DNA of 64,000 bases from Ignavibacteria bacterium. Lineage in GTDB: Bacteria > Bacteroidota > Ignavibacteria > Tepidaquicellales > Tepidaquicellaceae. Below the pieces are notes generated by a model that was not told where the DNA came from, did no database searches, and worked only from the letters and a program-made list of their open reading frames with translations. Shown here one piece after another: positions 41,059 to 56,260 of the stretch. Made by a program: the position numbers and the translations under genes. Position 1 is the stretch's first letter. Each line of letters begins with the position of its first letter. The DNA is taken from assembly GCA_019187405.1 (NCBI GenBank), contig JABAQZ010000014.1, positions 1 to 64,000 of the forward strand, given 5' to 3'.

Positions 41059-41074
41059 TGGCACGATAATTGAA
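41059..41074 (+). promoter_or_regulatory. Sigma-54 (-24/-12) promoter of the cytochrome locus
   Basis: TGGCACG at 41059-41065, four bases, then TTGAA at 41070-41074 matches the sigma-54 consensus TGGCACG-N4-TTGCA except that the -12 element reads TTGA. It lies 30-45 bases upstream of the first gene of the locus (41104) and 140 bases downstream of a gene for a GAFTGA-containing regulator. Spacing of the -24 GG and -12 motif is correct. Transcription should start near 41085. Confidence 0.75.
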
Positions 41075-41103
41075 AGGAATAAATTACCCAAGAATATTAT
41101 GCC

Positions 41104-41460
41104 ATGGAAAATTTCAGAATCCACATTATTTGTCAGAAACCTGAAATCTGCTCATTGATAAAAAAATCATTAACCCGATTGGGATTAAATGTATCCTGTT
41201 CGGAATCTGAAGGAATTTTTGAACAGCAATACATGAATAATGACATAAAGATCGATTGTATGATACTTGACAAAAAATTAAGTGATTCAGTTGCAGACAG
41301 AATGAATGCAAAAAATAAAGATATTTCATTTATTTATCTGCCATCGCTGGATATTGAAAAAAATGAAATTAATACTGACGATGGCAAAATTTCTGAACCG
41401 CTTAAAATAAGTGAGCTGTCAAATGTTATACAAAATATTTTAAGTCACAAAAGAGTTTGA
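41104..41460 (+). CDS. Degenerate receiver-domain protein
   Basis: The 118-residue protein has the secondary structure of a response-regulator receiver but lacks key parts. The N-terminal strand reads RIHIICQKPEI in place of a DDE-type acidic pair. The phospho-acceptor position may be the Asp in IDCMILDKKLSD. The usual Lys of KPF is not obvious: the segment is SEPLKISEL. Without the acidic cluster it is unlikely to be phosphorylated like a normal receiver. It is the first gene after the sigma-54 promoter and overlaps the 19-heme cytochrome gene (TGATG), so it is probably co-translated with it. It may be a pseudo-receiver that tunes the system by protein contact. Confidence 0.55.
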   Translation: MENFRIHIICQKPEICSLIKKSLTRLGLNVSCSESEGIFEQQYMNNDIKIDCMILDKKLSDSVADRMNAKNKDISFIYLPSLDIEKNEINTDDGKISEPLKISELSNVIQNILSHKRV

Positions 41461-43355
41461 TGCATCTCTTAAAAAATATTGCAGTAATTTCTTCATCAGT
41501 GATCTTGATTGTATCTGTGCTTATTTCAGCTGACAGATATTCAATCAGTTCATCCAAAAGCGCTGAAGTATGTCTCTCCTGTCATGAGGATGAAAGTCTT
41601 ACGATGGAGAAAGGCGGAAAAACCATATCAATTTATGTAAATCCTGCTGAGTATCAGAATTCAGTTCATGCCGGAGCAGATTGCGCCGATTGTCATTTAG
41701 GTTATAATCCGGACGAGATCCCTCATTCAAAAAGCATTCAGAAAGTAAACTGCGGAAGCTGTCATGATGATACTAAAGGTCTTGAAAACAGCGTGCATTC
41801 AAAAGTAAACTGTGCTGATTGTCATTCAAAGCATGGGATCAAACCGGTTAAGGAGATTGCGGAGAATCAGACAGAAAGCTGTCTCGGCTGTCATAAAGGA
41901 AAAAGCATCAGGCAGTTTTCGACAAGCATTCACAACAAGAAAAATACCGGCTGCAACGGTTGTCACAGCGGAGGACATGACGTAAAAAATATTCAGAAGC
42001 AGGAAGTAACGACAGTTTGCGGGAAATGTCATTCAGAAAGTAAAATGAAGTTCAGCAACAGCATTCATACTACTCTTACTAAGGCAGGGAACAAAATCAC
42101 GCCTATATGCACAGACTGTCACGGTTCACATCAGATATTAACCAGCAAGTATTCGATAGAGTCAGAAGCCTGTCTTAAGTGTCATCTTGATGAAAAGCAG
42201 TTTCCCGGAGAAAGTAAGGGCTCTGCTAAATTTGTAGCCGAGTATAAAACGAGTATTCATGCTGGTTTAAAAGGAGAAACTGAATCAGCAGGATGTACAG
42301 ATTGTCACGGCAATCATATGATTAAGGATCCGAATGATCCGGGGTCTTCCGTTTCGCGATACAAGCTAACCGAGACATGCGCAAAGTGTCACAGAGAAAT
42401 TGCCGAAGAATTTAAAAAATCCTCTCACGGTAAAGCTCTTAATGACAAAAACATTTCAGCTCCGACATGTGTAAGCTGTCACAATGAACATTCAATTAAG
42501 TCAGTTCCATTTTCGAATGAACTTTCAAAGCTGAATCAGGTTGAGACATGTCTTAAATGTCATGAAGAAGGGAAACTGCCTTATAAAAATTACAAAGGAG
42601 AAGAGGAGTTAATAAGCAATTACAAAGACAGTTACCATTACAAAGCACTGCAGGAAGGGAAGTTTGATGCAGCTACATGTTCAGACTGTCACGGTGCTCA
42701 TAGCATGGCAAAATTTGACGATCCGAATTCTCATGTTTATAAAAAGAACATTGCAATGACATGCGGTAAGTCAAATTGTCACACAAAGGAATTAAGCGAA
42801 TTTGAAGGCAGCGTTCATAACATTTCCATTATGAAAAATGAAAACTCCGATGCTCCAACCTGTACAAACTGTCACGGAAATCATCAGATACTCAATAAGG
42901 ACGAAACTGGCAACAGGATTGCAAGTTCAAAAGGAGTTATTCAGCTATGTTCGGATTGTCATAATTCGGTTGAGCTGAATGAGAAGTATGATCTTCCGAC
43001 GGGAAGGACTTCGTCTTATCTTGACAGTTATCACGGATTAGCGGTAAGAGGAGGCTCAAAGCTTGCGGCTGATTGCGGAAGCTGTCACGGAAATCATGAC
43101 ATAAAAGCATCAACTGATTCGGCATCGAGCATTAGCAAAAACAATTTAGCAAAGACTTGCGGAAATTGTCATCCCGGAGTGGAAGCAACTTTCTTTCAGA
43201 CAAAGATTCACATTGTTGACAAACGAGCGGATGCACCGGGTGTCTGGTGGGTAACGCTTATATATCTTTTATTAATTTTCGGAACGATTGGCGTTATGGT
43301 GTTTCACAATATATTGGATATAAGGAAAAAAGCAGCCGAGAGGCAGACAGAATAG
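41460..43355 (+). CDS. 19-heme c-type cytochrome with C-terminal membrane anchor
   Basis: I count eighteen CxxCH sites plus one CX4CH (CGKSNCH, about residue 423) in 631 residues, giving up to nineteen hemes, mostly as CxxCH-x-H-containing 'NCHGNHQI' or 'DCHGSH' repeats typical of the cytochrome c3/NapC-like superfamily. An N-terminal signal peptide or anchor (NIAVISSSVILIVSVLISA) and a C-terminal helix (WWVTLIYLLLIFGTIGVMVFHNIL) hold it at the inner membrane, hemes facing the periplasm. The ATG at 41460 overlaps the previous stop codon. The next gene is a b-type cytochrome, so together they form a probable menaquinol-oxidising complex that passes electrons into the periplasmic multiheme chain. 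Confidence 0.9.
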   Translation: MHLLKNIAVISSSVILIVSVLISADRYSISSSKSAEVCLSCHEDESLTMEKGGKTISIYVNPAEYQNSVHAGADCADCHLGYNPDEIPHSKSIQKVNCGSCHDDTKGLENSVHSKVNCADCHSKHGIKPVKEIAENQTESCLGCHKGKSIRQFSTSIHNKKNTGCNGCHSGGHDVKNIQKQEVTTVCGKCHSESKMKFSNSIHTTLTKAGNKITPICTDCHGSHQILTSKYSIESEACLKCHLDEKQFPGESKGSAKFVAEYKTSIHAGLKGETESAGCTDCHGNHMIKDPNDPGSSVSRYKLTETCAKCHREIAEEFKKSSHGKALNDKNISAPTCVSCHNEHSIKSVPFSNELSKLNQVETCLKCHEEGKLPYKNYKGEEELISNYKDSYHYKALQEGKFDAATCSDCHGAHSMAKFDDPNSHVYKKNIAMTCGKSNCHTKELSEFEGSVHNISIMKNENSDAPTCTNCHGNHQILNKDETGNRIASSKGVIQLCSDCHNSVELNEKYDLPTGRTSSYLDSYHGLAVRGGSKLAADCGSCHGNHDIKASTDSASSISKNNLAKTCGNCHPGVEATFFQTKIHIVDKRADAPGVWWVTLIYLLLIFGTIGVMVFHNILDIRKKAAERQTE

Positions 43356-43375
43356 ATAGATAAATTTATAATTCA

Positions 43376-44161
43376 ATGAAAACAAAGAGCGGTAAAAAAT
43401 ATTTACGGATGACATTAAACGAGAGAATTCAGCATTTCATTTTGCTGCTGAGTTTTATCGTGCTGATAATCACGGGTTTTGCATTGAAGTATCCCGAAGC
43501 TCTTTGGGTGCAGGCATTCAGAAATGTATTCGGCGAAAATGCATTTGAATGGAGAGGTGATGTACACAGAATTGCAGGCGTTTTCTTAATAGGAGTTTCG
43601 GTATATCACATTTTCTATTTGATATTTTCGGGCAGAGGCAGAGAATTTATGAGAGATATGTGGATCAAAAAGAAAGATATTACAGAAATGATAGATACTT
43701 TTAAATATTATCTGGGAAAGAAAGAAGATAAACCAAGATTCGGAAGGTTCAGCTATATAGAAAAGATTGAGTACTTTGCAGTTTACTGGGGAAATTTTAC
43801 AATGGTGTTAACCGGAATATTTCTTTGGTTTGAAAATATATTTCTTCCCGTAATAACGCCTGCCGGAATGGAAATAGCAACAGCCATACATTTTTATGAA
43901 GCAATACTTGCTTCGCTGGCGATATTGTTCTGGCATTTTTACTTTGTCATTTATAATCCCGATGTTTATCCAATGAACAAAGCCTGGTTAACCGGATACA
44001 TATCAAGGCATCAGATGGAAAACGAACATCCTCGGTGGCTTGACGAACTGGAGAATGCTGAAAGCAAAAAACAAAACGGCGCTGACAATTCTGAAAATGT
44101 AAATGAATTATCAGAAAGCGAAAAAGAAAAACTCTCAAAAGACGACTCAACCCAACTTTAA
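43376..44161 (+). CDS. Inner-membrane b-type cytochrome (cytochrome b561/FDH-gamma-like)
   Basis: The 261-residue protein has four transmembrane helices with histidines in the positions expected for two b-hemes: RIQHFILLLSFIVLII, GDVHRIAGVFLIGVSVYHIFYLI, EIATAIHFYEAILASL and LFWHFYFVIYN. It belongs to the cytochrome b/b6 N-terminal family seen in hydrogenase and formate dehydrogenase gamma subunits. The C-terminal 55 residues are a polar cytosolic tail (NADNSENVNELSESEKEK-like, low complexity). It directly follows the 19-heme cytochrome gene and should supply electrons to it from the quinone pool. Confidence 0.88.
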   Translation: MKTKSGKKYLRMTLNERIQHFILLLSFIVLIITGFALKYPEALWVQAFRNVFGENAFEWRGDVHRIAGVFLIGVSVYHIFYLIFSGRGREFMRDMWIKKKDITEMIDTFKYYLGKKEDKPRFGRFSYIEKIEYFAVYWGNFTMVLTGIFLWFENIFLPVITPAGMEIATAIHFYEAILASLAILFWHFYFVIYNPDVYPMNKAWLTGYISRHQMENEHPRWLDELENAESKKQNGADNSENVNELSESEKEKLSKDDSTQL

Positions 44162-44170
44162 TTTAAATTT

Positions 44171-44293
44171 ATGCCAAGTAAAAAGAAAATTGTAAGCGAT
44201 TTATCATCAAAGCCGAGCATCTATGTCCACAATTATGATCTCATTACGTCCTTGCTTAGTGAAAAAATTAAAAAACTAAATAAGTTTAAGTAA
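44171..44293 (+). CDS. 40-residue reading frame upstream of and in frame with the Rieske gene
   Basis: ATG at 44171 to TAA at 44291 gives a basic, soluble 40-residue peptide (MPSKKKIVSDLSSKPSIYVH...). It is in the same frame as the Rieske coding sequence: after the TAA the frame stays open straight into the Rieske Tat signal. It could be a separate small protein, an upstream leader that couples translation to the Rieske gene, or the true N-terminus of the Rieske protein interrupted by a stop codon. I recognise no homologue. Its first base is 10 bases after the preceding b-type cytochrome gene. Confidence 0.45.
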   Translation: MPSKKKIVSDLSSKPSIYVHNYDLITSLLSEKIKKLNKFK

Positions 44294-44299
44294 TTAAAA

Positions 44300-44770
44300 A
44301 TTAATATTAAATTAAGTATCGAAAAAAAGATTTTAAAAAAACAATCGAGAAGGGATTTTTTAAATTTCATTCTCGGTGTCGGATTAACGGGATGGATTGC
44401 AACCGTATTGTATTCGGTATATTCATTTTTTAAATCGCCTGAAATAAATAAGGCTGATCCTAACAGAATTGAATTAGGAAAAATTAATGAATTACCAGAA
44501 AACGAATTTAAAACATTTAAGCTTGGTAAAACTCCCGGTGTATTGATAAATAACGGCAACGGCGAGCTGAAAGCATTGAGTACGGTGTGCTCTCACATGC
44601 AATGTACCGTAAAATATTTAAAAGACGAAAAAATATTTTTATGTCCTTGTCATAGCGGTAAATATGACATAAACGGAAAAAACATAAGCGGTCCGCCGCT
44701 GCAGCCGCTGACGGAATTTAAAGTAATGCTGATTAAACAAAAAATAATTGTTTCAAGAATCCTTAAATGA
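44300..44770 (+). CDS. Rieske iron-sulfur protein, start codon unresolved
   Basis: The C-terminal part has the Rieske cluster motifs CSHMQC (usually CTHLGC) and CPCHSG, binding a 2Fe-2S centre by two Cys and two His, then the SGPPLQPL loop. Upstream in frame is a twin-arginine-type signal SRRDFLNFILGVGLTGWI with a membrane anchor, as in most Rieske proteins. From the TAA at 44291 to that signal there is no ATG, GTG or TTG. The first conventional start, TTG at 44408, lies after the transmembrane helix and would give a protein without signal or anchor. Start candidates are ATT at 44300, 44306 or 44330, or fusion to the 40-residue frame upstream. It partners the cytochrome b gene that overlaps its end by 4 bases. 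Confidence 0.85.
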   Translation: MNIKLSIEKKILKKQSRRDFLNFILGVGLTGWIATVLYSVYSFFKSPEINKADPNRIELGKINELPENEFKTFKLGKTPGVLINNGNGELKALSTVCSHMQCTVKYLKDEKIFLCPCHSGKYDINGKNISGPPLQPLTEFKVMLIKQKIIVSRILK

Positions 44771-45831
44771 TAACATCTAATAAACCGGATTATCAATCGG
44801 AGAATAATACAATAAGCGAGGATACCGGCGGTCAGAAGAAAAAAAATGCCGCATTGAATTTGGAATTCATAAATAATTATTCAGGCAGTGCTTTTATTTT
44901 TTTGCTAATTGTTCAAGTCGTTACCGGCATGCTGCTTGTGTTTTATTACAAGGGATATCCCGAGCTTGCATTCGAAAGCGTACTGCACATAAACTCAAAT
45001 GTAAATTCGGGATGGTTTATTAAATCTTTGCATACGGCAGCGTCGAATGCAATGATAATATGCTTAATGATTTACATGCTGACAATGTTTCTCGGAAAAT
45101 TATATTATGACAAAGAATGGAGCGTATGGATAACGGGATTTATTTTATTGCTGATTTCGGCTGCCTCTTTATTTACGGGAAAACTTCTTCCGTGGAGCGA
45201 AGCATCATATTACTCGACAATGACGGCTGTAAATTATATCGGTGAGATTCCTTTGGTCGGAAATTTTCTAAGAAATGTATTTACCGGAGGAGATAAATTA
45301 AGCAGTATTTCTCTTCCAAGATTTTACGGACTTCATATTTCTGTTATTCCGATAATCTTTATAATTACTTTAGTTATTCATCTAATGACATTGCATAAAG
45401 GAAAAGTTATCATTCAAAATGAAACTTTAAAAAATGGAAATGACAGATTATATTTTCCACAGACATTTCTTTTAAGAAACTTATTGATATGGGCATTAAT
45501 ACTTGCTGTCATGGTACCGATTTCAATTTATACTCCATGGGAACCGGGGAATAAAATGGATGAATTAATTTCCGAACCTAAATTTGAAAAACCCGGCTGG
45601 TATTTTAATTTCATGCTCGGCGGATTAAACGGAGGTGATTCCAAACTGAGCTCTGGCGGAGGAAATATTATTTCGAATATTTTTATTGCTGCATTTGTAA
45701 TTTTTGGGATTATATTACCATTCGTTGATAAAAACACCAAAGATGGCAAGAGAAGTAAGCTGGTATTGGCAGCAGGGGCAATACTTTTTTTATATTTTTT
45801 GTCAGTTACAATAATTGGATTTTTAAAATGA
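44767..45831 (+). CDS. Cytochrome b of a divergent Rieske/bc-type complex
   Basis: The 354-residue protein unites the cytochrome b N-terminal and C-terminal domains: about eight helices, with VVTGMLLVFYYKGYPELAFESV, SGWFIKSLHTAASN, GKLLPWSEASYY and RFYGLHISV. Heme ligands His89, His190 and His205 are seen. The fourth, expected 14 residues after His89, is Tyr103. The Qo-site PEWY motif is PGWY (residues 276-279), so the catalytic glutamate is missing. Helix D has the 15-residue His spacing of cytochrome b6 complexes. It is encoded between the Rieske and 11-heme genes, overlapping both by 4 bases, so the three probably form one complex in the inner membrane. Confidence 0.9.
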   Translation: MITSNKPDYQSENNTISEDTGGQKKKNAALNLEFINNYSGSAFIFLLIVQVVTGMLLVFYYKGYPELAFESVLHINSNVNSGWFIKSLHTAASNAMIICLMIYMLTMFLGKLYYDKEWSVWITGFILLLISAASLFTGKLLPWSEASYYSTMTAVNYIGEIPLVGNFLRNVFTGGDKLSSISLPRFYGLHISVIPIIFIITLVIHLMTLHKGKVIIQNETLKNGNDRLYFPQTFLLRNLLIWALILAVMVPISIYTPWEPGNKMDELISEPKFEKPGWYFNFMLGGLNGGDSKLSSGGGNIISNIFIAAFVIFGIILPFVDKNTKDGKRSKLVLAAGAILFLYFLSVTIIGFLK

Positions 45832-47297
45832 ATATTTCGGAGAAAAAAATACCGGTCAATAAAATTTTAAAAGTCATTTATTGCCTTTTATTTTCGGGAT
45901 ATGCTTTTTACTCCGCAAAAATTTATGCGCAAAATGTGAATCTGGAAAAAGAAGATATGTGCTATAATTGTCATGCCATACTCGAAGGCAGGCTGAAGAC
46001 GCCGGCTGATCTATATAAGAAGGATGTTCATTTTGAAAAAGGTATTTCATGTGCATCATGTCATGGCGGGAATTATAAGTCTGACGATGTTGATATCTCT
46101 ATGGATTCGACAGCAGGATTTATCGGTAAACCTGCACCGAACAAGATTGCCGGAATCTGCTCAAAATGTCACAGTAAACAATATTCAAAATTCAAAAACA
46201 GCGTGCATGGAAATTCTGTTTCGGGTAAAGGCGCTCCTATCAGCAGCTGCATTGTCTGTCACGGGATTCATGATATTTCTCCCGTTAAATCGGCGGATTC
46301 AAAAGTAAGGAGCACAAACATAGTAAACACATGCAATTCATGTCACGGGAATGCATCTATTATAAAAAGATACAACAAAAATTTACCCGTGAATCAATTG
46401 AAAGATTATAAGACTTCGGTTCATGGAAAAGGATTGCTAAAAGGAGACAGGAAAGTTCCTTCTTGTATATCTTGTCACAATCATCACGATATATTAAGAG
46501 TCAGCGATGAGAATTCACCCGTTAACAGAATTAATGTTATGGGTACCTGTAATAAATGTCACGGGGACAGTTTATATATGAGCGGATATAAGATTCCATT
46601 CGGTCAATATGAAAAATATAAAACGTCCGTTCATGGTAAAGCATTTCTCGAGCAAAAAAATCCGAAAGCTCCAGTATGCATAAATTGTCATGGCAGCCAC
46701 GGAATCAATCCACCGGGAACAGAAAAATTTTCCGAAGTTTGCGGAAGCTGTCATGTGATAAATGCACAGATGTTTAAGAATAGTCCTCATCATAAAGCGT
46801 TCAACGAAAAAGGATTAAATCATTGTTCGACCTGTCACAATCAGCATGACATAAATCATCCAACGGATGAAATGATTGGAGCCGGAGAAAAATCCGTCTG
46901 TGTAAAATGTCATAAGGATGATAAAGGAATCGAAATGTCAGTTTACATGAAAAAGATGATAGACAGTTTAATGAGTGAAGCAGAAGAAGCAAACATGCTT
47001 TTGGGATATGCAGCTTTAAAAGGAATGGATGTGCTTGATTCAAAAATAGACGATAATGAATTAAAGCAAATATTGATTACAAGCAGAACGTCAGTCCATA
47101 GTTCGGATCCAGAAATATTTAAAAGTAAAATCGAAGCAGGTTTTAAAATCACAGATGAAGCCAAAGACATTGCTGAAAAAGCTCAGAATGAATATTCATT
47201 AAGAAAGATTCTTCCCTGGATTTCGGTTTTTTTTGTTGCAGTAATTTTTGTATCGGGTTTATTTAAATTAAGAAAAAATAAAAAAGTAAAAGAATAA
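45828..47297 (+). CDS. 11-heme c-type cytochrome with C-terminal anchor
   Basis: Eleven CxxCH motifs lie in the first 375 residues, in a repeating 'CxxCHG-HDI' pattern with conserved SVHGKG/SVHGKAF spacers, which bring distal histidines. A signal peptide (YCLLFSGYAFYSAKIYA) precedes them. The last 115 residues are heme-free: an alpha-helical stretch and a transmembrane anchor (ILPWISVFFVAVIFVSGLF). It overlaps the cytochrome b gene, so it probably replaces cytochrome c1 or f as electron acceptor of the Rieske complex. Electrons would then leave for soluble tetraheme carriers or the outer-membrane conduits. Resembles the multiheme subunit beside bc-type genes in several Deltaproteobacteria and Ignavibacteria, by family knowledge. 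Confidence 0.88.
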   Translation: MNISEKKIPVNKILKVIYCLLFSGYAFYSAKIYAQNVNLEKEDMCYNCHAILEGRLKTPADLYKKDVHFEKGISCASCHGGNYKSDDVDISMDSTAGFIGKPAPNKIAGICSKCHSKQYSKFKNSVHGNSVSGKGAPISSCIVCHGIHDISPVKSADSKVRSTNIVNTCNSCHGNASIIKRYNKNLPVNQLKDYKTSVHGKGLLKGDRKVPSCISCHNHHDILRVSDENSPVNRINVMGTCNKCHGDSLYMSGYKIPFGQYEKYKTSVHGKAFLEQKNPKAPVCINCHGSHGINPPGTEKFSEVCGSCHVINAQMFKNSPHHKAFNEKGLNHCSTCHNQHDINHPTDEMIGAGEKSVCVKCHKDDKGIEMSVYMKKMIDSLMSEAEEANMLLGYAALKGMDVLDSKIDDNELKQILITSRTSVHSSDPEIFKSKIEAGFKITDEAKDIAEKAQNEYSLRKILPWISVFFVAVIFVSGLFKLRKNKKVKE

Positions 47298-47340
47298 TAT
47301 TTACAAATAATTAAATTTAAAAATTCAAAAAGGAGAAAAA

Positions 47341-47916
47341 ATGCGTTTCGGAAAAATGGTTACTTCTGTTTTGATTCTTTCATTCAGCTTGTTTTATTTC
47401 GGTGCGATAAAAATTGAAACCGATAAAAGCGAACAGTTTAAATATATCGGAGCCGATAAATGCGGAAGCGTATGTCACAAGGGTGATTCAAAAGGAAACC
47501 AATATGAGAAGTGGCAGAACTCAAAGCATTCAAAAGCTTTTTTAACATTACAGACTCCGGAAGCCGACAAAATTGCTCTCGACAAAGGATTCACAACGCC
47601 TGCCGCGGAGACGCCGGCTTGCGTAAAATGTCATGTGCTCGGCAAGGATCTGGATGAATCGGAGTTTACGGAAACTTTTGATAAAACCCAGGGAGTACAA
47701 TGTGAGACCTGTCATGGTCCGGGATCGGAATATAAAGGAATACTTGTAATGAAAGATAAAGAGTTATCAAAAGAGAAAGGTCTGATAATTCATAAAAATG
47801 ACAGAGACGTATTTTGCGCAACATGTCACAATCAGGAAAGCCCTACATTTAAGGGATTTAATCTTGATGAAGAATGGGAAAAAATTAAACATTTGAGACC
47901 TGTAACCGGACAGTAA
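47341..47916 (+). CDS. Tetraheme cytochrome c554-like carrier 1
   Basis: The 191-residue protein has a signal peptide (MVTSVLILSFSLFYFGAI) and four heme sites: a CX3CH (CGSVCH, about residue 41) and CVKCH, CETCH, CATCH. The spacing and the KWQNSKHSKAFLTLQ, AAETPACVKCHVLGKD, GVQCETCHGPGSEY and SPTFKGFN segments place it in the cytochrome c554/multiheme c family. Soluble periplasmic carrier between inner-membrane oxidases and outer-membrane conduits is the likely role. It has a strong Shine-Dalgarno (AGGAG at 47331-47335), rare in this window, implying high expression. Paralogues follow at 51542 and 52136. Confidence 0.88.
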   Translation: MRFGKMVTSVLILSFSLFYFGAIKIETDKSEQFKYIGADKCGSVCHKGDSKGNQYEKWQNSKHSKAFLTLQTPEADKIALDKGFTTPAAETPACVKCHVLGKDLDESEFTETFDKTQGVQCETCHGPGSEYKGILVMKDKELSKEKGLIIHKNDRDVFCATCHNQESPTFKGFNLDEEWEKIKHLRPVTGQ

Positions 47917-47955
47917 GATTTTTATTTTGCTTTCATAAGCCATAATAAAAGAACA

Positions 47956-49242
47956 ATGAAAAGAATAATTTACTCCTTATTAATTTTGATTTCATTATCT
48001 GATGTTTTGTATTCTCAATCAATAAATTTCAGAGTGAGTTCGTATTTTTATAGTTGGGAAAGAGCTGACAGTATCTATACTTCAAGCAAGACATCACATT
48101 TAAAAGGATATCAAAATTTACTGCTCGAAGCAACTCATAACAAATGGAGTCTTCACTCTCTTTTACAGACGGAAGAGGACATAGTAAATAAATCGGGCGA
48201 CGGGTTTAACTTCAGGATTTATAATCTTTATTTAAAAGGAAGCAATCTGCTGAATCTGTTTGATTTAAAATTGGGGAGACAGTATGTGTTTGCAGGTACT
48301 GGTAATTCGGCTATTGACGGAATTCACATTAAGCTAAAAGCCGGGAAGAGCAAGCAATATCAGTTTACTGGTTATGCAGGCGCGTTAACTGCGCTTGATT
48401 ATGAAGTAAAAAAATATCCGGAGCTGAATAAAAATTTTGCATTCGGCGCATTATTTTCCTATTACGGAATAAGAGGTATGAATGCTGCCTTGAGTTATTT
48501 CAAAAGAAATAAACAAATGGAATCCTATTCTGCATTAAGATTGGACAGTCTGTTTGTAACGCAAACGGTGGAAGTTGACAGAGATTTCCGACAGGATCAG
48601 CTTGCAGGTTTGGAGGTTAACTATACTTTACAAAATCATCTCAATGCTTATCTTAAAACTTACTATGATCTTAACTCCGGAAATTTATACCGCTGTGAAT
48701 TAAACGGCAGATATAAGATTGATAATATGGATTTTTCTCTTTCTTATACATACAGACAGCCATACATAAGATACAACAGCATATTCTGGGTTTTTCCTTA
48801 TGAAGAAAACCATGAATTGGAAGCCGGCTTCGATTATATATTTAAATCGGGATTGAATTTGTTCTGCAAAATAACGGATAATATATTCACCGAAGATAAT
48901 TCATTAAGACTTCAATTGGGAGTGAGCCACATGAATTATGGAATCAGTTATACCAATCAATCTGGATATGGAGGAAGCGCTAACGGCATCAATGCATATT
49001 ATTATAAAGAAATTATCAGGACTCTGCTTTCCGGTAACGTTTCGGTAAATTATTATAACTACGGAATGGGTAAATATTACAAGGAAAGGTTCGATGCATT
49101 TAGCGGAATGCTTGGAGTTACGTTAAGACCATTCCCTAACCTGAGTTTTGATGCGCAGGGACAGATTGTAACGAACAAAATAAGCAAATATGATATGCGG
49201 ATGTTGTTTGGAATAAATTACTGGTTATTCGAAAAATTTTAG
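47956..49242 (+). CDS. Outer-membrane beta-barrel porin of conduit module A
   Basis: The 428-residue protein has a signal peptide (LLILISLSDVLYSQS). The mature part alternates amphipathic strands, rich in Tyr, Asn and Gly (GYQNLLLEA, FRIYNLYLKGSNLLNLFDLKLGRQYVF, YGSGNIQNGI-like), and ends in a C-terminal aromatic residue (WLFEKF) as expected for insertion by the BAM machinery. No cysteine-heme sites. Its length and strand content suit a barrel of about 20 or more strands able to sheath a cytochrome. It is followed by 14-heme and 7-heme cytochrome genes and has a full-length paralogue of identical length at 52721, so it is the pore of an electron conduit. Confidence 0.82.
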   Translation: MKRIIYSLLILISLSDVLYSQSINFRVSSYFYSWERADSIYTSSKTSHLKGYQNLLLEATHNKWSLHSLLQTEEDIVNKSGDGFNFRIYNLYLKGSNLLNLFDLKLGRQYVFAGTGNSAIDGIHIKLKAGKSKQYQFTGYAGALTALDYEVKKYPELNKNFAFGALFSYYGIRGMNAALSYFKRNKQMESYSALRLDSLFVTQTVEVDRDFRQDQLAGLEVNYTLQNHLNAYLKTYYDLNSGNLYRCELNGRYKIDNMDFSLSYTYRQPYIRYNSIFWVFPYEENHELEAGFDYIFKSGLNLFCKITDNIFTEDNSLRLQLGVSHMNYGISYTNQSGYGGSANGINAYYYKEIIRTLLSGNVSVNYYNYGMGKYYKERFDAFSGMLGVTLRPFPNLSFDAQGQIVTNKISKYDMRMLFGINYWLFEKF

Positions 49243-49262
49243 AAATTATTTATTTAAAAAAT

Positions 49263-50528
49263 ATGAATGCCTTAAAAGTTTATTTGTTATTCTTCACGGG
49301 TTTTATTGTTTTGATTGTTTGCTTAGCATTCAAATTTAATGATACTCATGCGGGCTCGAATATCCATTCTGATTTCCCGAATAAAAAAAACAAAGCAGAC
49401 AGCAGTAAAATAATTAAGTTTGACCACAGGCTTCATATTAAAGATGTAGGAGCAAAGTGTCAGGATTGTCACACAAAAGTTTTATCATCTGAAGATTCGA
49501 GAGACAACCTTAATCCCGGCGAAAAAACATGTTCGACATGTCATGATGTAAAAGACAAGAAGGACTGTAAGTTATGTCATTATGAAGGAGTTTTTAAAAA
49601 ATTAAAATCAGTTAAGAGGGAAATTTATTTTTCTCATAAATTGCACATAGGGGAAGTCCAATGTACGTATTGTCATACAGATTTGGACAAAGTTAAATAT
49701 TCAAATTCAAACGGCACTGGAGCGGGATTTCCTTCAATGGAAAAATGTTATGATTGTCATAATAATAAAAAGGCGCCGAATAACTGCGATGCATGTCATA
49801 AAAATCTGACAAATTTAAAACCCAAGGATCATCTCGGCAATAATTTTTTGAACGAGCACAAAATATATTCCGGAGGTATCTCCGAAAAGAATAACTGTAT
49901 GATGTGTCATAGCGATAATTTTTGTCAAGTATGTCACAGTCCGCTGAAATATTCCGGCAACAATACACCGGAGAATTTTTATTCTCCTTATTATACAAAA
50001 GAAACAGCAACAAGAACCGACAGGGAAGCATTGCAAAAACTTACTACAAGGCATGTATTAAATTACCGGTTCATTCACGGACTTGATGCAAATCAGAAAG
50101 GCTTTGAATGTAAAACATGTCATGATCCGGTCGAGTTTTGTTCTTCATGTCATCAAAACAACGGAAGCATAGTAACCGGTATATTGCCAAACAGTCATCA
50201 GCAGCAAAATTTTACATCGTTTGGCGTCGGCTCGGGAGGAGGCTTGCATGCTGAGCTTGCAAAAAAAGATATCGAATCCTGCCAGTCATGTCATGATCCT
50301 GAAGGAAGCGATCCGACTTGTGTTAAATGTCATTTTGACAATGACGGCGTAATAGGTACAAATCCGAAAACGCATGATTACGGATTTTTAAAAGATGAAA
50401 AAGGAATATGGCATCAGACACGCGGAGCTAATTGCTACGTTTGTCATACAGATCCAAATTCTAAACCTGATGGAATCCCGGGAACAGGATTTTGCGGGTA
50501 TTGTCATGGAAATAATAATGCAAAATAA
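49263..50528 (+). CDS. 14-heme c-type cytochrome of conduit module A
   Basis: I count fourteen CxxCH motifs in 421 residues, starting at CQDCH (about 66) and ending at CGYCH (about 414). Conserved features include FDHRLH and FSHKLH (distal His), the close pair CMMCHSDNFCQVCH, CKTCHDPVEFCSSCH and CQSCHDPEGSDPTCVKCH. The N-terminal hydrophobic stretch (VYLLFFTGFIVLIVCLAF) is a signal peptide or anchor; the Cys at residue 20 is not in a good lipobox. Its size and place after the porin suggest that it threads the barrel or docks at its periplasmic mouth, comparable in role to MtrA/OmaB, with more hemes. Its paralogue is at 54025. Confidence 0.88.
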   Translation: MNALKVYLLFFTGFIVLIVCLAFKFNDTHAGSNIHSDFPNKKNKADSSKIIKFDHRLHIKDVGAKCQDCHTKVLSSEDSRDNLNPGEKTCSTCHDVKDKKDCKLCHYEGVFKKLKSVKREIYFSHKLHIGEVQCTYCHTDLDKVKYSNSNGTGAGFPSMEKCYDCHNNKKAPNNCDACHKNLTNLKPKDHLGNNFLNEHKIYSGGISEKNNCMMCHSDNFCQVCHSPLKYSGNNTPENFYSPYYTKETATRTDREALQKLTTRHVLNYRFIHGLDANQKGFECKTCHDPVEFCSSCHQNNGSIVTGILPNSHQQQNFTSFGVGSGGGLHAELAKKDIESCQSCHDPEGSDPTCVKCHFDNDGVIGTNPKTHDYGFLKDEKGIWHQTRGANCYVCHTDPNSKPDGIPGTGFCGYCHGNNNAK

Positions 50529-50539
50529 AATTTATTTTT

Positions 50540-51400
50540 ATGAAAAATAAATTACTATTATATCTGATTTTTTTAATGGCAGCCGTGACTGCAGGAATAT
50601 ACATTGGATGTGAAGAGACAACCGATAACCTGATTACAACTCCTACGTCTGCTGCGCATCCTTCGGGATGGAGAGATTCCAGCTCGACAAATTTTCATGG
50701 CAAGTTTATTCAGGATAATAAATTATGGAATTTAAAAAAATGTCAGGGCTGCCACGGCGCAGATTATAAAGGAGGCAGTACGGGAATGAACTGCAATACA
50801 TGCCATATCGAGCCGGGAGGACCGGAAAATTGCATGCTGTGTCATGGCAGCAAATCCGGCAACATCAATCCGCCAAAAGCATTGAACGGGAATACTTCAA
50901 TTGAATATTTGGGAGTTGGCATGCATGAATTTCATTTAGATACTACAAAATACTCTAAAAATGTAGAATGCAGCGAATGTCATAAATTATTTAACAATGT
51001 ATTCAGTGATTCAAATCATATCGGAAATATGCCTGATGGAATTGCCGATATTAATTTTGGAAGTCTGGCAAAGACTTCAATCGGCGGTGGGATTTTTCCG
51101 GTACCTGTGTGGAACAGAAGTTCTGGATCATGCTCTGAAGTTTATTGTCATGGTAATTTTAAAAACGGGAATAGAGATGCGATAGCTGTATGGACGGACA
51201 GTGCAAGCGTAAAATGCGGCACATGCCATGGTGATCCCAATACGGGAAATCCAAATCCAAAACCGAATGGGACTTTTGTACCGCCTCATTCTTCTACATT
51301 TACAATCAATAACTGTTATCTGTGTCATGGATCCGTTATTTCTAATTTGGGAAAAATAACAAATAAGAATTTACACGTGAATGGAATTATCAATTATTAA
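50540..51400 (+). CDS. 7-heme cytochrome lipoprotein of conduit module A
   Basis: The 286-residue protein has a lipoprotein-like signal peptide (LIFLMAAVTAGIYIGC, Cys at about residue 24). Six CxxCH motifs and one CX4CH (CSEVYCH) follow. The last CX4CH ... CxxCH pair (CSEVYCHGNF ... VKCGTCHGDP) is the domain first named from Geobacter (CxxxxCH...CXXCH). N-terminal lipidation and position after the porin suggest it is tethered to the outer membrane, probably on the cell surface as the terminal exit of electrons. Both sides of the membrane are formally possible. The paralogue is at 55306. Its gene ends the first module, 140 bases before the next. Confidence 0.85.
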   Translation: MKNKLLLYLIFLMAAVTAGIYIGCEETTDNLITTPTSAAHPSGWRDSSSTNFHGKFIQDNKLWNLKKCQGCHGADYKGGSTGMNCNTCHIEPGGPENCMLCHGSKSGNINPPKALNGNTSIEYLGVGMHEFHLDTTKYSKNVECSECHKLFNNVFSDSNHIGNMPDGIADINFGSLAKTSIGGGIFPVPVWNRSSGSCSEVYCHGNFKNGNRDAIAVWTDSASVKCGTCHGDPNTGNPNPKPNGTFVPPHSSTFTINNCYLCHGSVISNLGKITNKNLHVNGIINY

Positions 51401-51541
51401 TTATTAATTATTAGAATCATACAGTAGTAAAAAAAATTTTGATTTAATTTTTTAATATATGATTTTAAAGCTGTTTTATTATTAGCAAAAAATTGCTGAT
51501 TTAAAAATAATGCAGTTATTTTAAAAAGAGGAGACTTAAAA

Positions 51542-52111: not shown

Positions 52112-52135
52112 TTAATCGCTAAATGATTAATTAAA

Positions 52136-52702
52136 ATGAGCGCAGTATTTAAAATTAATTATGTGATTTTTACCGGAATAATTTCAGTTTTATTTATTCT
52201 TTCGGGTGAAAATTTATCCCGGTCAAAATATAAATATGTCGGCGTAAATACTTGCATCGGCGCATGTCATAAGTCGGAAGAGCAGGGAAATCAGTTTTCG
52301 ATCTGGCAAAACTCTGCTCATTCTAAAGCATTTCTTACTCTGCAGACCGAAAGAGCTGACAGCATTGCCAAAGCAAAAGGATACGAAACACGCGCAGCTG
52401 AAACTCCACAATGCGTGAAATGTCACGTTCTCGGGAAAGATATTGATGAAAGCGAACTTAAGGGTTCGTTTGATAAAGCGCAGGGAGTTCAGTGTGAAAG
52501 CTGTCACGGACCTGGATCGGAATACAGAAAATTATCCGTGATGAAAGATAAAGGAAGAGCTGTTGAAAAGGGGCTAATCATTCATACAGAAAAGGAAAAG
52601 TTTTGCATTCATTGTCATAATGAAGAAAGCCCGACTTATTTTGAGTTTAATTACGAACCAATGTGGGAGATCATAGCACATTACAAACCAAAAGAAAAGT
52701 AA
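52136..52702 (+). CDS. Tetraheme cytochrome c554-like carrier 3
   Basis: This 188-residue paralogue of carriers 1 and 2 has CX3CH (CIGACH), CVKCH, CESCH and CIHCH. Signal peptide: YVIFTGIISVLFILSG. It follows carrier 2 after 24 bases, which means the second module carries two c554-like genes where the first carries one. Divergence in the C-terminal region (SPTYFEFNYEPMWEIIAHYKPKEK) may set partner specificity. Function as a periplasmic shuttle is inferred. Confidence 0.87.
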   Translation: MSAVFKINYVIFTGIISVLFILSGENLSRSKYKYVGVNTCIGACHKSEEQGNQFSIWQNSAHSKAFLTLQTERADSIAKAKGYETRAAETPQCVKCHVLGKDIDESELKGSFDKAQGVQCESCHGPGSEYRKLSVMKDKGRAVEKGLIIHTEKEKFCIHCHNEESPTYFEFNYEPMWEIIAHYKPKEK

Positions 52703-52720
52703 TTTAAATCTTGAAAAGCT

Positions 52721-54007
52721 ATGAAACATATATACGTTTTTATTTTTATCTTTTTATCGGCAGCTGAGGTTTATTCTCAATCGGTTAATTTAAGATTAAG
52801 CACTCAGTTTTACAGTTGGGAAAGAGCCGACAGCATTAACGGATCCGAAAAGACTGCTCATCTGAAAGGTTATCAAAACATGCTTCTTGAAGTTTCAGGA
52901 AGCAAATGGAGCTTTAACACCCTTGCTCAAATAGATGAAGACCTTGTAAATAAAATCGGAAGAGGATTTGATTACAGATTTTATAACTTTTATCTGAAAG
53001 GTACAAATCTTTTTGATGTAATGGATCTTAAGCTTGGGAGACAATATTTGTATTCAGGAGTCGGAAGAGGAGCAATTGACGGAATATATCTTAAAGTTAA
53101 AGCAGGCAAGAAGAGAGAATATCAGTTTACAGCATTCGGCGGTGCATTAACTCCGCTCGATTATACTTTCAGCGATTACAAATCTCTCGACGAGAATTTT
53201 CTTGCAGGCGGGATGTTTCAGTACTTCGGCGTCCGGGATTTTAATGCATCACTAAGCTACATGAATAAACATAAAAAACCAGAGAGTTATACTGCAGTAA
53301 GAATTGACAGCGCATTTATGACGCAGGAGATTTTGATAGATACAGATTCGCCTGCAGATCAGCTGATTGGAATTGATCTGAATTATCTTTACAATAAAAA
53401 ACACAACTTTTTTGCAAAAGCCTATTATGACATTAACAATAAAGTTTTTTACAAAGGAGAAATCAATGCAAGCGTGGTTCTGACAAAAGAGCTGAGATTC
53501 TCGGCGATGTATGAATACAGAGAACCGCAGATCAGTTACAATACCATTTTCAGAACATTTAATTTCAAACAAAATCAGGAAATAGGCGCAGGGATAGATT
53601 ACACATTTAAGAACGGTGTTAATGCTTTTGGAAGAATTGCAAATGTGATTTACGATGATGACAACTCGCTAAAGTTTCAGCTGGGATTCAGTCATCCTTC
53701 TTTCGGATTGTCATATACGAAATACACAGGATATGCCGGATTTTCTGACGGAGCATACGGCTATTATTACAGACAGCTTGTAAAAGAAAGACTTTCGATG
53801 AATGCAGGAATCGGATTTTCAAGTTACAGAGTGAGTGAATACGCCACCGATAAAACGGATGTTCTAAGCGGGCTGCTCGGACTCACATTCAGACCGAATC
53901 CTCAATTCAGCATTGATGTTCAGGGACAGATAAACACTAACAGGATTTATAAGTACGATACAAGAGTGCTTGTGGGAATAAATTACTGGTTATTTAAAAA
54001 GTTTTAA
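52721..54007 (+). CDS. Outer-membrane beta-barrel porin of conduit module B
   Basis: The 428-residue porin is a full-length paralogue of the one at 47956, with exactly the same length. Shared blocks include FYSWERADSI, KTAHLKGYQNMLLE, FYLKGTNLFDVMDLKLGRQYLY, GAIDGIYLKVKAGK and the C-terminal GINYWLFKKF. A signal peptide (IFIFLSAAEVYSQS) and terminal Phe fit BAM-dependent insertion. Middle regions are more divergent than ends, so the two pores may differ in their cytochrome fit or outer loops. It directly precedes the 14-heme gene of module B. Confidence 0.82.
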   Translation: MKHIYVFIFIFLSAAEVYSQSVNLRLSTQFYSWERADSINGSEKTAHLKGYQNMLLEVSGSKWSFNTLAQIDEDLVNKIGRGFDYRFYNFYLKGTNLFDVMDLKLGRQYLYSGVGRGAIDGIYLKVKAGKKREYQFTAFGGALTPLDYTFSDYKSLDENFLAGGMFQYFGVRDFNASLSYMNKHKKPESYTAVRIDSAFMTQEILIDTDSPADQLIGIDLNYLYNKKHNFFAKAYYDINNKVFYKGEINASVVLTKELRFSAMYEYREPQISYNTIFRTFNFKQNQEIGAGIDYTFKNGVNAFGRIANVIYDDDNSLKFQLGFSHPSFGLSYTKYTGYAGFSDGAYGYYYRQLVKERLSMNAGIGFSSYRVSEYATDKTDVLSGLLGLTFRPNPQFSIDVQGQINTNRIYKYDTRVLVGINYWLFKKF

Positions 54008-54024
54008 TTCATAAAAACAATATT

Positions 54025-55275
54025 ATGAAAACTGCAAAGTATTATATTTTATTTCTTGCCGGAGTGATTACTTTTTTTAGCACAGCTGGATATTTTTTTA
54101 AGACCGGTAGTTTAAAACAAACCAACGGTAAGAATTTTTATGAATCGCAGGTTTATGACAACAGCAAGATTATCAAATTTGATCATAAACTTCATTCGGT
54201 GGATGCGGAAATCAAATGCGAAGACTGCCACTCAAAAGCTTTAAAGTCTGTAAGTTCAAAAGATAATCTTAATCCCGTGAAAAAAAACTGTGAAAGCTGT
54301 CACGACGTAAAAGATACAAAGCAGTGTAATCTCTGTCATTATGAAAATGTCTTTAAAAAACTCAAAGCATCTGACAGCGAGCTGAACTTTTCGCACAAGC
54401 AGCATGCAAAGGATAAGAATTGTACAGATTGTCATCAGGGAATTGAAAAAGTTAAATTTTCCAAAGAAGCATCAGCGGGATTTGCAAGCATGGAAAGCTG
54501 TTATTCATGCCATAACAATATGAAGGCATCAAACAACTGCGAATCTTGTCATAATAAACTTACAAATCTTGTTCCGAAAGATCATCTAAGAACAAATTTT
54601 CTGAATCAGCATAAATCGGCATCCGGAGTTAATGAAAAGAACAATTGCATGATGTGTCACAGCGATAATTTCTGCCAGGCATGTCATAGTCCTATGAAAT
54701 ACTCCGGGAATAATACAAGAGAAAATTTTTATGCTCCGTATTATACAAAGGAAACAGGCGTAAGGACGGACAGGGAGAAACTTCAGAAGCTGAATACAGC
54801 TCATGATCTGAATTATAAATTTACACACGGACTCGACGCCAGTCAGAAATCATTTGAATGCAAAACCTGTCACGATCCGGTTTCTTTCTGCGCATCATGT
54901 CATCAGAACGGAGGAGATCAGATAACGGGAATTGCTCCATCGAGTCACCTTCAGCCTAACTTTACAACCATCGGAGTAAACACGGGAGGCGGATTGCATT
55001 CAGAGCTTGCAAAGAGAGACATTGAGTCATGCCAGTCATGTCATGATGTGGAAGGAAGGGATCCGGTTTGTATCTCTTGTCATTTTGACAATGACGGAGT
55101 AAAAGGTACAAATCCGAAAACTCATGAATCGGGATATTTAAGCGATGACAAAGGTATCTGGCATGATACGAAAGGCGCGATATGTTATACATGCCATACG
55201 GATCCGAATGCAAGACCTGACGGAATAAGCGGAGTCGGTTTTTGCGGTTACTGTCACGGAAACAGCGGCAGATAA
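54025..55275 (+). CDS. 14-heme c-type cytochrome of conduit module B
   Basis: The 416-residue paralogue of the protein at 49263 has fourteen CxxCH sites in the same order, including the CMMCHSDNFCQACH pair, CKTCHDPVSFCASCH and CYTCHTDPNARPDGISGVGFCGYCH end. The N-terminal hydrophobic segment (YYILFLAGVITFFSTAGYFF) has no cysteine, which supports the view that neither paralogue is a lipoprotein. Distal histidines in FDHKLHS and FSHKQHA are retained. It is predicted to form the electron wire through or under the module B porin. Confidence 0.88.
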   Translation: MKTAKYYILFLAGVITFFSTAGYFFKTGSLKQTNGKNFYESQVYDNSKIIKFDHKLHSVDAEIKCEDCHSKALKSVSSKDNLNPVKKNCESCHDVKDTKQCNLCHYENVFKKLKASDSELNFSHKQHAKDKNCTDCHQGIEKVKFSKEASAGFASMESCYSCHNNMKASNNCESCHNKLTNLVPKDHLRTNFLNQHKSASGVNEKNNCMMCHSDNFCQACHSPMKYSGNNTRENFYAPYYTKETGVRTDREKLQKLNTAHDLNYKFTHGLDASQKSFECKTCHDPVSFCASCHQNGGDQITGIAPSSHLQPNFTTIGVNTGGGLHSELAKRDIESCQSCHDVEGRDPVCISCHFDNDGVKGTNPKTHESGYLSDDKGIWHDTKGAICYTCHTDPNARPDGISGVGFCGYCHGNSGR

Positions 55276-55305
55276 TTTTTTTTTTGAAGTTTAAAAATAC
55301 TGGTT

Positions 55306-56181
55306 ATGAAAAAAATAAATTTACTGTATTTAATTTTCACATTCATAATTGCAATTCCCGTAATTTATCAGGGGTGCAGCGAGACGGAAGATAATCTGGT
55401 TAATTCGCCCGAACTGCTGACACATCCGGACGGCTGGGCTGATACAGCTTCACAGAATTTTCACGGGAAATATATTTTTGACAATAAACAGTGGAATCTG
55501 AAATCATGCAGGAGCTGTCACGGCGGAGATTATGCCGGAGGAACTTCAGGTTCAACTTGTCTTACATGTCATTCGGCATCGGGCGGACCGCAGAATTGCA
55601 GGCTTTGCCACGGAGGTCTGCCGGGAAGATCGAGTCCTCCAAAAGCTTTGAATGGTGAAACTTCCGAAGCTTACATCGGAGTTGGGATGCATGTTTCACA
55701 CATGGACTCGACAAATTATTCAAAACCTGTTGTCTGCAGTGAGTGTCATAAATCATTAACAGAAGGTTTTGACAGTCCCGATCATATCGGTGATAATCCT
55801 GACGGAATTGCTGAAGTAACTTTCGACGTGCTGGCAAAGACGGAAACGTTTTATGAAGGCGGAAGTTTCATGCCGAATCCGGTATGGAATCGCGAAGCTG
55901 TTTCATGCTCAGAATCTTATTGTCATGGAACGTTTAAAGACGGAAATCTTATTGCGTCGCCTGTGTGGACAGATAAACAAAGCGTGAAATGCGGTTCATG
56001 TCACGGCGATCCGGTCAGCGGAAATCCTAATCCTATTCCCAATGGAAATTTCTTTCATCCGCATTATCCGGAATATACAATAAACATCTGCTATCAGTGT
56101 CATGGAGGAGTCATAAACAACGCTGGAGTCATTACTGCACCGGATTTGCACCTTAACGGAGTCGTAAATTTTAACGACTGA
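55306..56181 (+). CDS. 7-heme cytochrome lipoprotein of conduit module B
   Basis: The 291-residue paralogue of the protein at 50540 has a lipobox-like end of its signal peptide (FIIAIPVIYQGC), six CxxCH motifs and a CX4CH (CSESYCH) followed by VKCGSCHGDP. The blocks NFHGKYIFDNKQWNLKSCRSCHGGDYAGG and PPKALNGETSEAYIGVGMH are shared with module A. It is probably the outer-membrane-anchored exit cytochrome of module B. Its stop codon is followed by the terminator at 56220-56260, so it ends the locus. Confidence 0.85.
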   Translation: MKKINLLYLIFTFIIAIPVIYQGCSETEDNLVNSPELLTHPDGWADTASQNFHGKYIFDNKQWNLKSCRSCHGGDYAGGTSGSTCLTCHSASGGPQNCRLCHGGLPGRSSPPKALNGETSEAYIGVGMHVSHMDSTNYSKPVVCSECHKSLTEGFDSPDHIGDNPDGIAEVTFDVLAKTETFYEGGSFMPNPVWNREAVSCSESYCHGTFKDGNLIASPVWTDKQSVKCGSCHGDPVSGNPNPIPNGNFFHPHYPEYTINICYQCHGGVINNAGVITAPDLHLNGVVNFND

Positions 56182-56219
56182 TGTAAAGATTAAGCTACTG
56201 AATAATAAATTATAATTCT

Positions 56220-56260
56220 TCAGACTTCAAAAAGTTTAATACTATTGAAGTCTGATTTTT
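56220..56260 (+). terminator. Intrinsic terminator ending the cytochrome locus
   Basis: An 11-bp stem (TCAGACTTCAA at 56220-56230, TTGAAGTCTGA at 56245-56255) is followed by a T run. It lies 39 bases after the last cytochrome gene, bounding a transcription unit of about 15.2 kb from the sigma-54 promoter at 41059. Confidence 0.85.

What the first reader, a model, noticed from the sequence alone, without database searches (positions are those of the whole stretch)
41059..56260. A 15-kb sigma-54-headed locus with 84 predicted heme-c sites, an apparent complete route from quinol to outside the cell
Seen: nine genes with 19+11+4+14+7+4+4+14+7 CxxCH-type motifs, two b-type cytochrome genes, a Rieske gene, two porin-like genes, all on one strand and in short spacing, between a -24/-12 promoter and a terminator. 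Known: porin-cytochrome conduits and multiheme quinol oxidases carry extracellular electron transfer in Geobacter and Shewanella. Inference: the locus packs inner-membrane, periplasmic and outer-membrane stages in one operon, in a lineage where such chains are barely described.
Basis: partly seen in the sequence, partly recalled or inferred. Interest (0 to 1): 0.9.

Follow-up and report, generated by a model that had tools for sequence, protein, structure and literature searches.

The report
Electron-export operon of an Ignavibacteria bacterium
A 15-kb stretch of a bacterial genome carries a gene set, conserved across the class Ignavibacteria, that looks built to carry respiratory electrons through both membranes to the outside of the cell, but in this genome one inner-membrane entry gene has been deleted and a second has lost residues it should need.

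Summary
In detail: 84 heme-c sites (78 CxxCH plus 6 CX3-4CH) in nine genes, with two cytochrome b genes, a Rieske gene and two outer-membrane barrels, all on one strand between a -24/-12 promoter and a hairpin terminator. The outer-membrane unit (tetraheme cytochrome, porin, 14-heme, 7-heme lipoprotein) is the conduit type already described in Ignavibacterium album (IALB_1840-1837) and is nearly class-wide: porin directly before the 14-heme gene in 72/72 relatives, lipoprotein cytochrome directly after in 78/78. The promoter is conserved 41-46 nt before the first gene in ten of eleven relatives, behind an NtrC-type regulator. So the electron-export reading is well supported as anatomy, and the outer half is not new. 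New here: inner-membrane quinol-oxidising modules of several kinds occur in different combinations upstream of one constant conduit. In this window the NapC-type 18-heme gene is reduced to a 40-codon scar, and the Rieske-partner cytochrome b has lost a heme-ligand His and the PEWY glutamate, so the 'complete quinol route' probably runs through the 19-heme/b561 pair. The genome also encodes a 9-heme cytochrome with a type IX secretion tail. Function is untested.

The parts
38346..39560 (+). sensor histidine kinase with PAS domain, upstream of the locus
   Evidence: PF02518, PF00512, PAS
39565..40917 (+). NtrC-type response regulator with receiver, sigma-54 activator and Fis-type HTH domains
   Evidence: PF00158 5e-70, PF00072, PF02954; GAFTGA motif present; same position in relatives
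41059..41074 (+). -24/-12 (sigma-54) promoter TGGCACGATAATTGAA, about 45 nt before the first start codon
   Evidence: conserved at 41-46 nt in 10 of 11 relatives with the same first gene
41104..41460 (+). 118-aa first gene, divergent receiver-like protein (no family match)
   Evidence: homologues at the same place in relatives
41457..43355 (+). 19-heme cytochrome with C-terminal membrane anchor (partner of the b561 gene; CbcA/CbcL periplasmic-domain type)
43376..44161 (+). diheme b561/FdnI-type membrane cytochrome b
   Evidence: PF01292 4e-18; histidines kept
44171..44290 (+). 40-codon scar: start codon plus the C-terminal end of a deleted 18-heme NapC-type cytochrome
   Evidence: (61% identity to residues 647-684)
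44294..44770 (+). Rieske protein with Tat signal SRRDFL; no ATG/GTG/TTG before the signal
   Evidence: PF00355; cluster ligands kept
44767..45831 (+). cytochrome b (b6 type plus subunit-IV part) with His-to-Tyr at the second helix-B heme ligand and PGWY in place of PEWY
   Evidence: PF00033 6e-35
45828..47297 (+). 11-heme cytochrome with C-terminal membrane anchor, constant partner of the Rieske/cyt b pair
47341..47916 (+). tetraheme cytochrome (c554 type), copy a
   Evidence: PF13435 2e-16
47956..49242 (+). outer-membrane beta-barrel, copy 1
   Evidence: AlphaFold2 pLDDT 87.5, about 24 strands; Z up to 19.8 to outer-membrane barrels
49263..50528 (+). 14-heme periplasmic cytochrome, copy a
50540..51400 (+). 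7-heme lipoprotein cytochrome (lipobox YIGC, CxxxxCH/CxxCH domain), copy a
   Evidence: PF09698, TIGR01904
51542..52111 (+). tetraheme cytochrome, copy b
   Evidence: PF13435
52136..52702 (+). tetraheme cytochrome, copy c
   Evidence: PF13435
52721..54007 (+). outer-membrane beta-barrel, copy 2 (49% identical to copy 1)
54025..55275 (+). 14-heme periplasmic cytochrome, copy b (64% identical to copy a)
55306..56181 (+). 7-heme lipoprotein cytochrome (lipobox YQGC), copy b
   Evidence: PF09698
56219..56262 (+). terminator-like hairpin followed by T7

Best explanation
The locus encodes a trans-envelope electron-export chain switched on by a PAS kinase/NtrC pair acting at a sigma-54 promoter. Menaquinol is oxidised in the inner membrane mainly by the 19-heme/b561 pair, which is built like Geobacter CbcL/CbcBA. 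Electrons pass to small tetraheme cytochromes and then through one of two outer-membrane conduits, each a beta-barrel with a 14-heme periplasmic cytochrome and a 7-heme surface lipoprotein, to an extracellular acceptor such as Fe(III)/Mn(IV) mineral, humics, an electrode or a partner cell. The conduit is a constant unit of Ignavibacteria; the quinol-oxidising entry modules vary. In this genome the NapC-type 18-heme entry was deleted, and the Rieske/cytochrome b/11-heme entry is kept but probably no longer runs a normal Q-cycle. Shown by sequence: gene content, conservation, promoter match, predicted barrel, scar, lost residues. Inferred: topology, direction, acceptor, electron path, and the functional effect of the cytochrome b changes.
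For: 84 heme sites, about two His per site and no CxxCK: electron-transfer rather than catalytic hemes. Porin directly upstream of the 14-heme gene 72/72, lipoprotein-like cytochrome directly downstream 78/78, tetraheme before the porin 61/67. Predicted outer-membrane barrel. Lipoboxes and signal segments. 14-heme gene in 153/245 sampled class genomes. Promoter at a fixed distance in 10 of 11 relatives. b561 histidines intact. Same gene order, 14-heme count and roles as IALB_1840-1837 (PMC4245776). Scar and lost residues.
Against: No expression, localisation or activity data. The 141-nt gap at 51401-51541 could split the cluster into two transcripts. No homologue of this particular conduit has been tested by mutation in the papers read. 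AlphaFold could not model the 14-heme protein (pLDDT 52), so its insertion in the barrel is not shown. The Geobacter ext operon, which has the closest named cytochrome b family (ExtP), is linked to selenite/tellurite and not to Fe(III) citrate (PMC5877670).
Confidence: 0.78

Rival explanations
1. The cluster reduces a soluble toxic oxyanion (selenite, tellurite or similar), as the Geobacter ext operon with Rieske, cytochrome b, porin and multiheme genes is thought to do.
For: The best NCBIfam match of the cytochrome b is ExtP (3e-40, below the family cut-off); the ext operon also joins Rieske, cytochrome b, multiheme cytochromes and a porin (PMC5877670).
Against: No rhodanese, selenoprotein ExtKL or ExtI-type gene was recognised in the cluster; the Rieske/cytochrome b part is absent from most relatives that keep the conduit (4 of 44 order genomes have it); the conduit matches the Pcc layout.
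Confidence: 0.08
2. Electrons run inward: the chain oxidises Fe(II) or takes electrons from a partner or cathode, with the b-type modules passing them to quinone.
For: Porin-cytochrome conduits and b/c modules are reversible in principle; CbcL relatives MtoC/MtrH occur in metal oxidisers (PMC6295460).
Against: Carbon fixation was not examined; the entry modules most like CbcL/CbcBA and ImcH serve outward flow in Geobacter (PMC12133095, PMC9129911); Ignavibacteria are reported in anode biofilms and among iron reducers (PMC7399161).
Confidence: 0.1
3. The cytochrome b with Tyr and PGWY is still a working quinol oxidase with unusual cofactor chemistry (this concerns one module and is compatible with the best explanation for the rest).
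For: The frame stays open over 354 codons despite about 65% divergence; the 11-heme partner keeps 11/11 sites; Qo-motif variants exist in nature (PMC9162462); another genome (G063) has PGWY with all four His.
Against: All 30 other homologues compared keep four His, and 29 of them PEWY; identity is 32-36% to relatives that share 64-83% with each other; the Rieske gene lacks a normal start codon.
Confidence: 0.25
4. The missing 18-heme gene is an assembly artefact.
For: The genome is a 38-contig draft; multiheme genes are internally repetitive.
Against: The scar keeps a start codon and an in-frame C-terminus that has its own substitutions; the flanks are in normal order; no other copy exists in a 98%-complete genome.
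Confidence: 0.1

Closest known systems
Ignavibacterium album pcc cluster IALB_1840-1837 (Shi et al. 2014, PMC4245776)
   Same: periplasmic cytochrome, porin, 14-heme 400-aa periplasmic cytochrome, outer-membrane cytochrome with atypical heme motifs, in that numbering order
   Different: here the conduit is duplicated and directly follows inner-membrane modules and a sigma-54 promoter; the IALB sequences themselves were not aligned here
Geobacter OmbB-OmaB-OmcB Pcc conduits
   Same: porin plus periplasmic plus surface multiheme cytochromes, Pcc layout
   Different: 14 and 7 hemes instead of 8 and 12; the I. album proteins are only distantly related to the Geobacter groups (PMC4245776)
Geobacter CbcL and CbcBA menaquinol oxidases
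   Same: multiheme c part plus FdnI/b561-type diheme membrane b part
   Different: 19 hemes, split into two genes; in many relatives fused as in CbcL (13-19 hemes)
Geobacter extHIJKLMNOPQS (selenite/tellurite) operon
   Same: Rieske, cytochrome b and multiheme cytochromes with a porin; ExtP is the best NCBIfam match
   Different: the ExtP model has 205 positions, here 354 aa with a subunit-IV-like part; no ExtH or ExtKL; the window's cytochrome b has lost canonical residues
Anammox Rieske/cytochrome b complexes with hexa/octaheme c subunits (PMC12954380)
   Same: Rieske and b6-like cytochrome b with a multiheme c in place of cytochrome f/c1
   Different: no NAD(P) oxidoreductase subunit seen; 11 hemes; next to an outer-membrane conduit

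Membership tests
Pcc (porin-cytochrome conduit) | outer-membrane beta-barrel gene next to multiheme cytochromes | tested here: met
   (barrel by prediction)
Pcc (porin-cytochrome conduit) | periplasmic multiheme cytochrome with signal peptide | tested here: met
   14 sites, N-terminal hydrophobic segment only
Pcc (porin-cytochrome conduit) | outer-membrane (lipoprotein) multiheme cytochrome, often with CX3-4CH sites | tested here: met
   lipoboxes YIGC/YQGC and CxxxxCH domain
Pcc (porin-cytochrome conduit) | the three proteins form a complex that moves electrons across the outer membrane | not testable with these tools
   needs purification and proteoliposomes
CbcL/CbcBA-type menaquinol oxidase | diheme b561/FdnI-type membrane subunit with conserved His | tested here: met
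   PF01292 above cut-off, TIGR01583 below its cut-off; His aligned with relatives
CbcL/CbcBA-type menaquinol oxidase | periplasmic multiheme c partner, fused or adjacent | tested here: met
   19-heme gene adjacent; fused form in relatives
CbcL/CbcBA-type menaquinol oxidase | oxidises menaquinol for extracellular respiration | not testable with these tools
   needs a mutant or purified protein
Canonical Rieske/cytochrome b (Q-cycle) complex | four His ligands for two b hemes | tested here: not met
   second helix-B His is Tyr
Canonical Rieske/cytochrome b (Q-cycle) complex | PEWY-type Qo motif | tested here: not met
   PGWY
Canonical Rieske/cytochrome b (Q-cycle) complex | Rieske cluster ligands CxH and CxxH | tested here: met
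   CSH and CPCH
Ext (selenite/tellurite) operon | ExtP above the curated cut-off | tested here: not met
   138 bits against a cut-off of 290
Ext (selenite/tellurite) operon | ExtH rhodanese and ExtKL selenoprotein genes | tested here: not met
   no such gene among those scanned from 36722 to 60664
Mtr (MtrAB) conduit | porin is an MtrB homologue | tested here: inconclusive
   no Pfam/NCBIfam match for copy 1; MtrB not among the listed structural matches

The most novel reading that the evidence does not exclude
Ignavibacteria own a class-wide, sigma-54-controlled electron-export system in which one constant outer-membrane conduit is combined with interchangeable quinol-oxidising modules and fed outward to cytochromes displayed by type IX secretion; in this lineage the Rieske/cytochrome b module has been rebuilt into a one-b-heme electron relay that no longer runs a Q-cycle.
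Probability: 0.22. Interest if true: 0.78.

Novelty: new variant of a known kind. Interest (0 to 1): 0.57.

Why it matters
It turns a vague 'Ignavibacteria may do extracellular electron transfer' into a defined, conserved operon with a predicted promoter, regulator and order of carriers, present in cultured relatives where it can be tested. It suggests that the outer-membrane exit is fixed while the quinol entry, which sets how much energy is conserved at a given acceptor potential, is exchanged or lost from lineage to lineage. The altered cytochrome b and the deletion scar give a natural test of which entry modules such a chain can do without.

Tried and rejected
AlphaFold2 of the 14-heme protein was poor (pLDDT 52) and was not searched further. 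MtrB did not appear among the listed barrel matches; this says little. Trees of the duplicated conduit proteins do not resolve whether copy a arose by duplication in this lineage or came with the Rieske module: 14-heme copy a is unplaced, porin copy 1 falls in the same group as copy 2 (96/94), tetraheme copy a pairs with a Rieske-bearing locus (95/83). The cytochrome b tree gave extreme branches (10 and 7.8), so only identities and motif states are used. No paper among those listed held PGWY. Nitrite, nitrate, tetrathionate or sulfite reductase readings were rejected: no such family above its cut-off apart from a 25-bit partial PF02335 match in the 11-heme protein, and no CxxCK; an NrfHA-like pair is elsewhere in the genome.
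Full report
What is there. The window lies in a 3.78-Mb draft genome whose nearest named relatives are Ignavibacteria. Between 41059 and 56262 all genes are on the + strand. Shuffled residues give 1.7 on average. There are about two histidines per site and no CxxCK, as expected for bis-histidine electron carriers and not for nitrite-reductase-like enzymes.

Regulation. A PAS histidine kinase and an NtrC-type regulator with GAFTGA sit just upstream. The site TGGCACGATAATTGAA at 41059 scores 11 of 12 against the -24/-12 consensus; in random 310-nt stretches from relatives a score of 11 occurs in 0.3%. More telling, ten of eleven relatives that share the 118-aa first gene have their best site 41-46 nt before its start codon; in the window it is 45. 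The exception (L093) has a first gene with a longer predicted N-terminus, so its start may be misplaced. At the far end a hairpin with T7 folds far better than shuffles (z = -4.8). A 141-nt gap at 51401-51541 means that a single transcript is likely but not shown; its folding is unremarkable (z = -1.8).

The outer-membrane unit. Each of two units has tetraheme cytochrome(s), a porin-like protein, a 14-heme cytochrome and a 7-heme lipoprotein. The porin has no family match above cut-off, but AlphaFold2 on 51 relatives gives a confident barrel of about 24 strands that aligns over most of its length with outer-membrane barrels (Z to 19.8); that shows the fold, not the function. The 14-heme gene occurs in 153 of 245 class genomes and in 24 of 29 of the window's own family; in a phylum-wide sample of 395 genomes 57 of the 58 matches are in the class, and the other is partial. 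In 80 loci with flanks up to 10 kb, the porin is immediately upstream in 72 of 72 and a lipoprotein-like multiheme cytochrome immediately downstream in 78 of 78 where there was room to see it. This is the layout that Shi et al. described for I. album: IALB_1840 periplasmic, IALB_1839 porin, IALB_1838 a 14-heme protein of 400 residues, IALB_1837 outer-membrane with atypical motifs (PMC4245776). The IALB sequences themselves were not compared here. Conduits in other Ignavibacteria were reported in PMC7399161. So this half is known in kind.

The inner-membrane units. The 19-heme protein (anchor at the C-terminus) and the b561/FdnI-like protein next to it correspond to the two halves of CbcL (PMC9129911); in many relatives they are fused. 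The histidines of the b subunit are aligned with relatives. Rieske, cytochrome b and an 11-heme membrane cytochrome form a second module, conserved in this order across the class but found in only 4 of 44 genomes of the window's order. Relatives add a third: an 18-heme protein whose N-terminus is NapC/NrfH-like, or a 7-heme protein that resembles ImcH (assignment by my reading; NrfH-like stretch). A fourth, an NrfC/NrfD pair with a 15-heme protein, appears in a few. In 49 loci with at least 9 kb upstream, the combinations seen are: CbcL-like plus 18-heme 14, CbcL-like alone 9, CbcL-like plus ImcH-like plus Rieske 4, CbcL-like plus 18-heme plus NrfCD 3, CbcL-like plus 18-heme plus Rieske 2, CbcL-like plus ImcH-like 2, 18-heme plus Rieske plus NrfCD 1, none within reach 14. 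These counts rest on BLAST labels and on flanks of limited length.

What is odd in this window. First, the 18-heme gene is gone. Between the b561 stop and the Rieske gene there is a 40-codon open frame, ATG at 44171, whose last 33 or so residues match the C-terminal end of the 18-heme protein (PSIYVHNYDLI...). No other copy, and no ImcH-like gene, was found in the genome; the only other NapC-type hit is an NrfH-like gene next to an NrfA-like one (my reading). All seven Rieske-bearing loci with full flanks keep a NapC-type gene; the window has none. Second, the cytochrome b differs at places where the family does not. Of 31 sequences, the window alone has Tyr in place of the second helix-B heme-ligand His, and only it and G063 have PGWY in place of PEWY. 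Cytochrome b is normally the best-conserved protein of this module (83% between G008 and G234, 64-66% to other orders), but the window's copy has 32-36% to the same sequences, less than its own neighbours (Rieske 38-49%, 11-heme 39-53%). The second Qo residue correlates with cofactor potential and quinone type, and replacing the Glu partly compromises turnover (PMC9162462). Third, the Rieske frame has no ATG, GTG or TTG before its Tat signal, though its cluster ligands are kept. The frames are open, so this is not simple decay; altered or relaxed function fits best. Whether the changes abolish activity is inference.

How it probably works. Menaquinol is oxidised by the 19-heme/b561 pair; electrons pass to tetraheme cytochromes and through one of two barrel/14-heme/7-heme conduits to the surface. 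The genome has an Alternative-Complex-III-like set (my reading of L188; NrfD match) and two heme-copper oxidases, so the Rieske module is probably not needed for aerobic respiration. It also encodes a 9-heme protein with a signal peptide and a type IX secretion tail (L187:6870-8954); proteins of this kind lie near the conduit in 12 of 80 relatives (PF18962 confirmed in six examples). They would make natural last carriers outside the cell. Direction and acceptor are inferred from relatives and from Geobacter.

Verdict. Anatomy confirmed, function likely, outer half already known in kind; the variable inner half, the deletion scar, the altered cytochrome b and the secreted cytochromes are what is new.

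Noticed in passing
L187:6870-8954 (own genome, contig C4 about 42869-44953); L142:6229-7830, L158:6330-7919, L139:1591-3675, L123:14110-16545, L080:6206-8302: Multiheme cytochromes (8-16 hemes) with a type IX secretion C-terminal tail, several directly upstream of the tetraheme-porin-14-heme-7-heme unit; no paper in the held library joined the terms type IX secretion, multiheme cytochrome and extracellular electron transfer.
   Followed up: partly
44171-44290: Scar of a deleted 18-heme NapC-type cytochrome: start codon and the last 33 or so residues kept in frame.
   Followed up: yes
L071:6340-7450 (genome G063): A second, separately diverged cytochrome b with PGWY in place of PEWY but all four heme ligands.
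   Followed up: partly
L091, L099, L101, L105, L106: A 15-heme cytochrome with NrfC- and NrfD-like genes inserted in the same operon, a further quinol module.
   Followed up: partly
56359-59307: Subtilase with a type IX secretion tail directly after the terminator; one of about 150 such tails listed in this genome.
   Followed up: no
L189:2238-4322: NrfA/NrfH-like pair elsewhere in the genome, suggesting nitrite ammonification.
   Followed up: no
41104-41460: The conserved 118-aa first gene of the operon looks like a degenerate receiver domain but matches no Pfam or NCBIfam family.
   Followed up: partly
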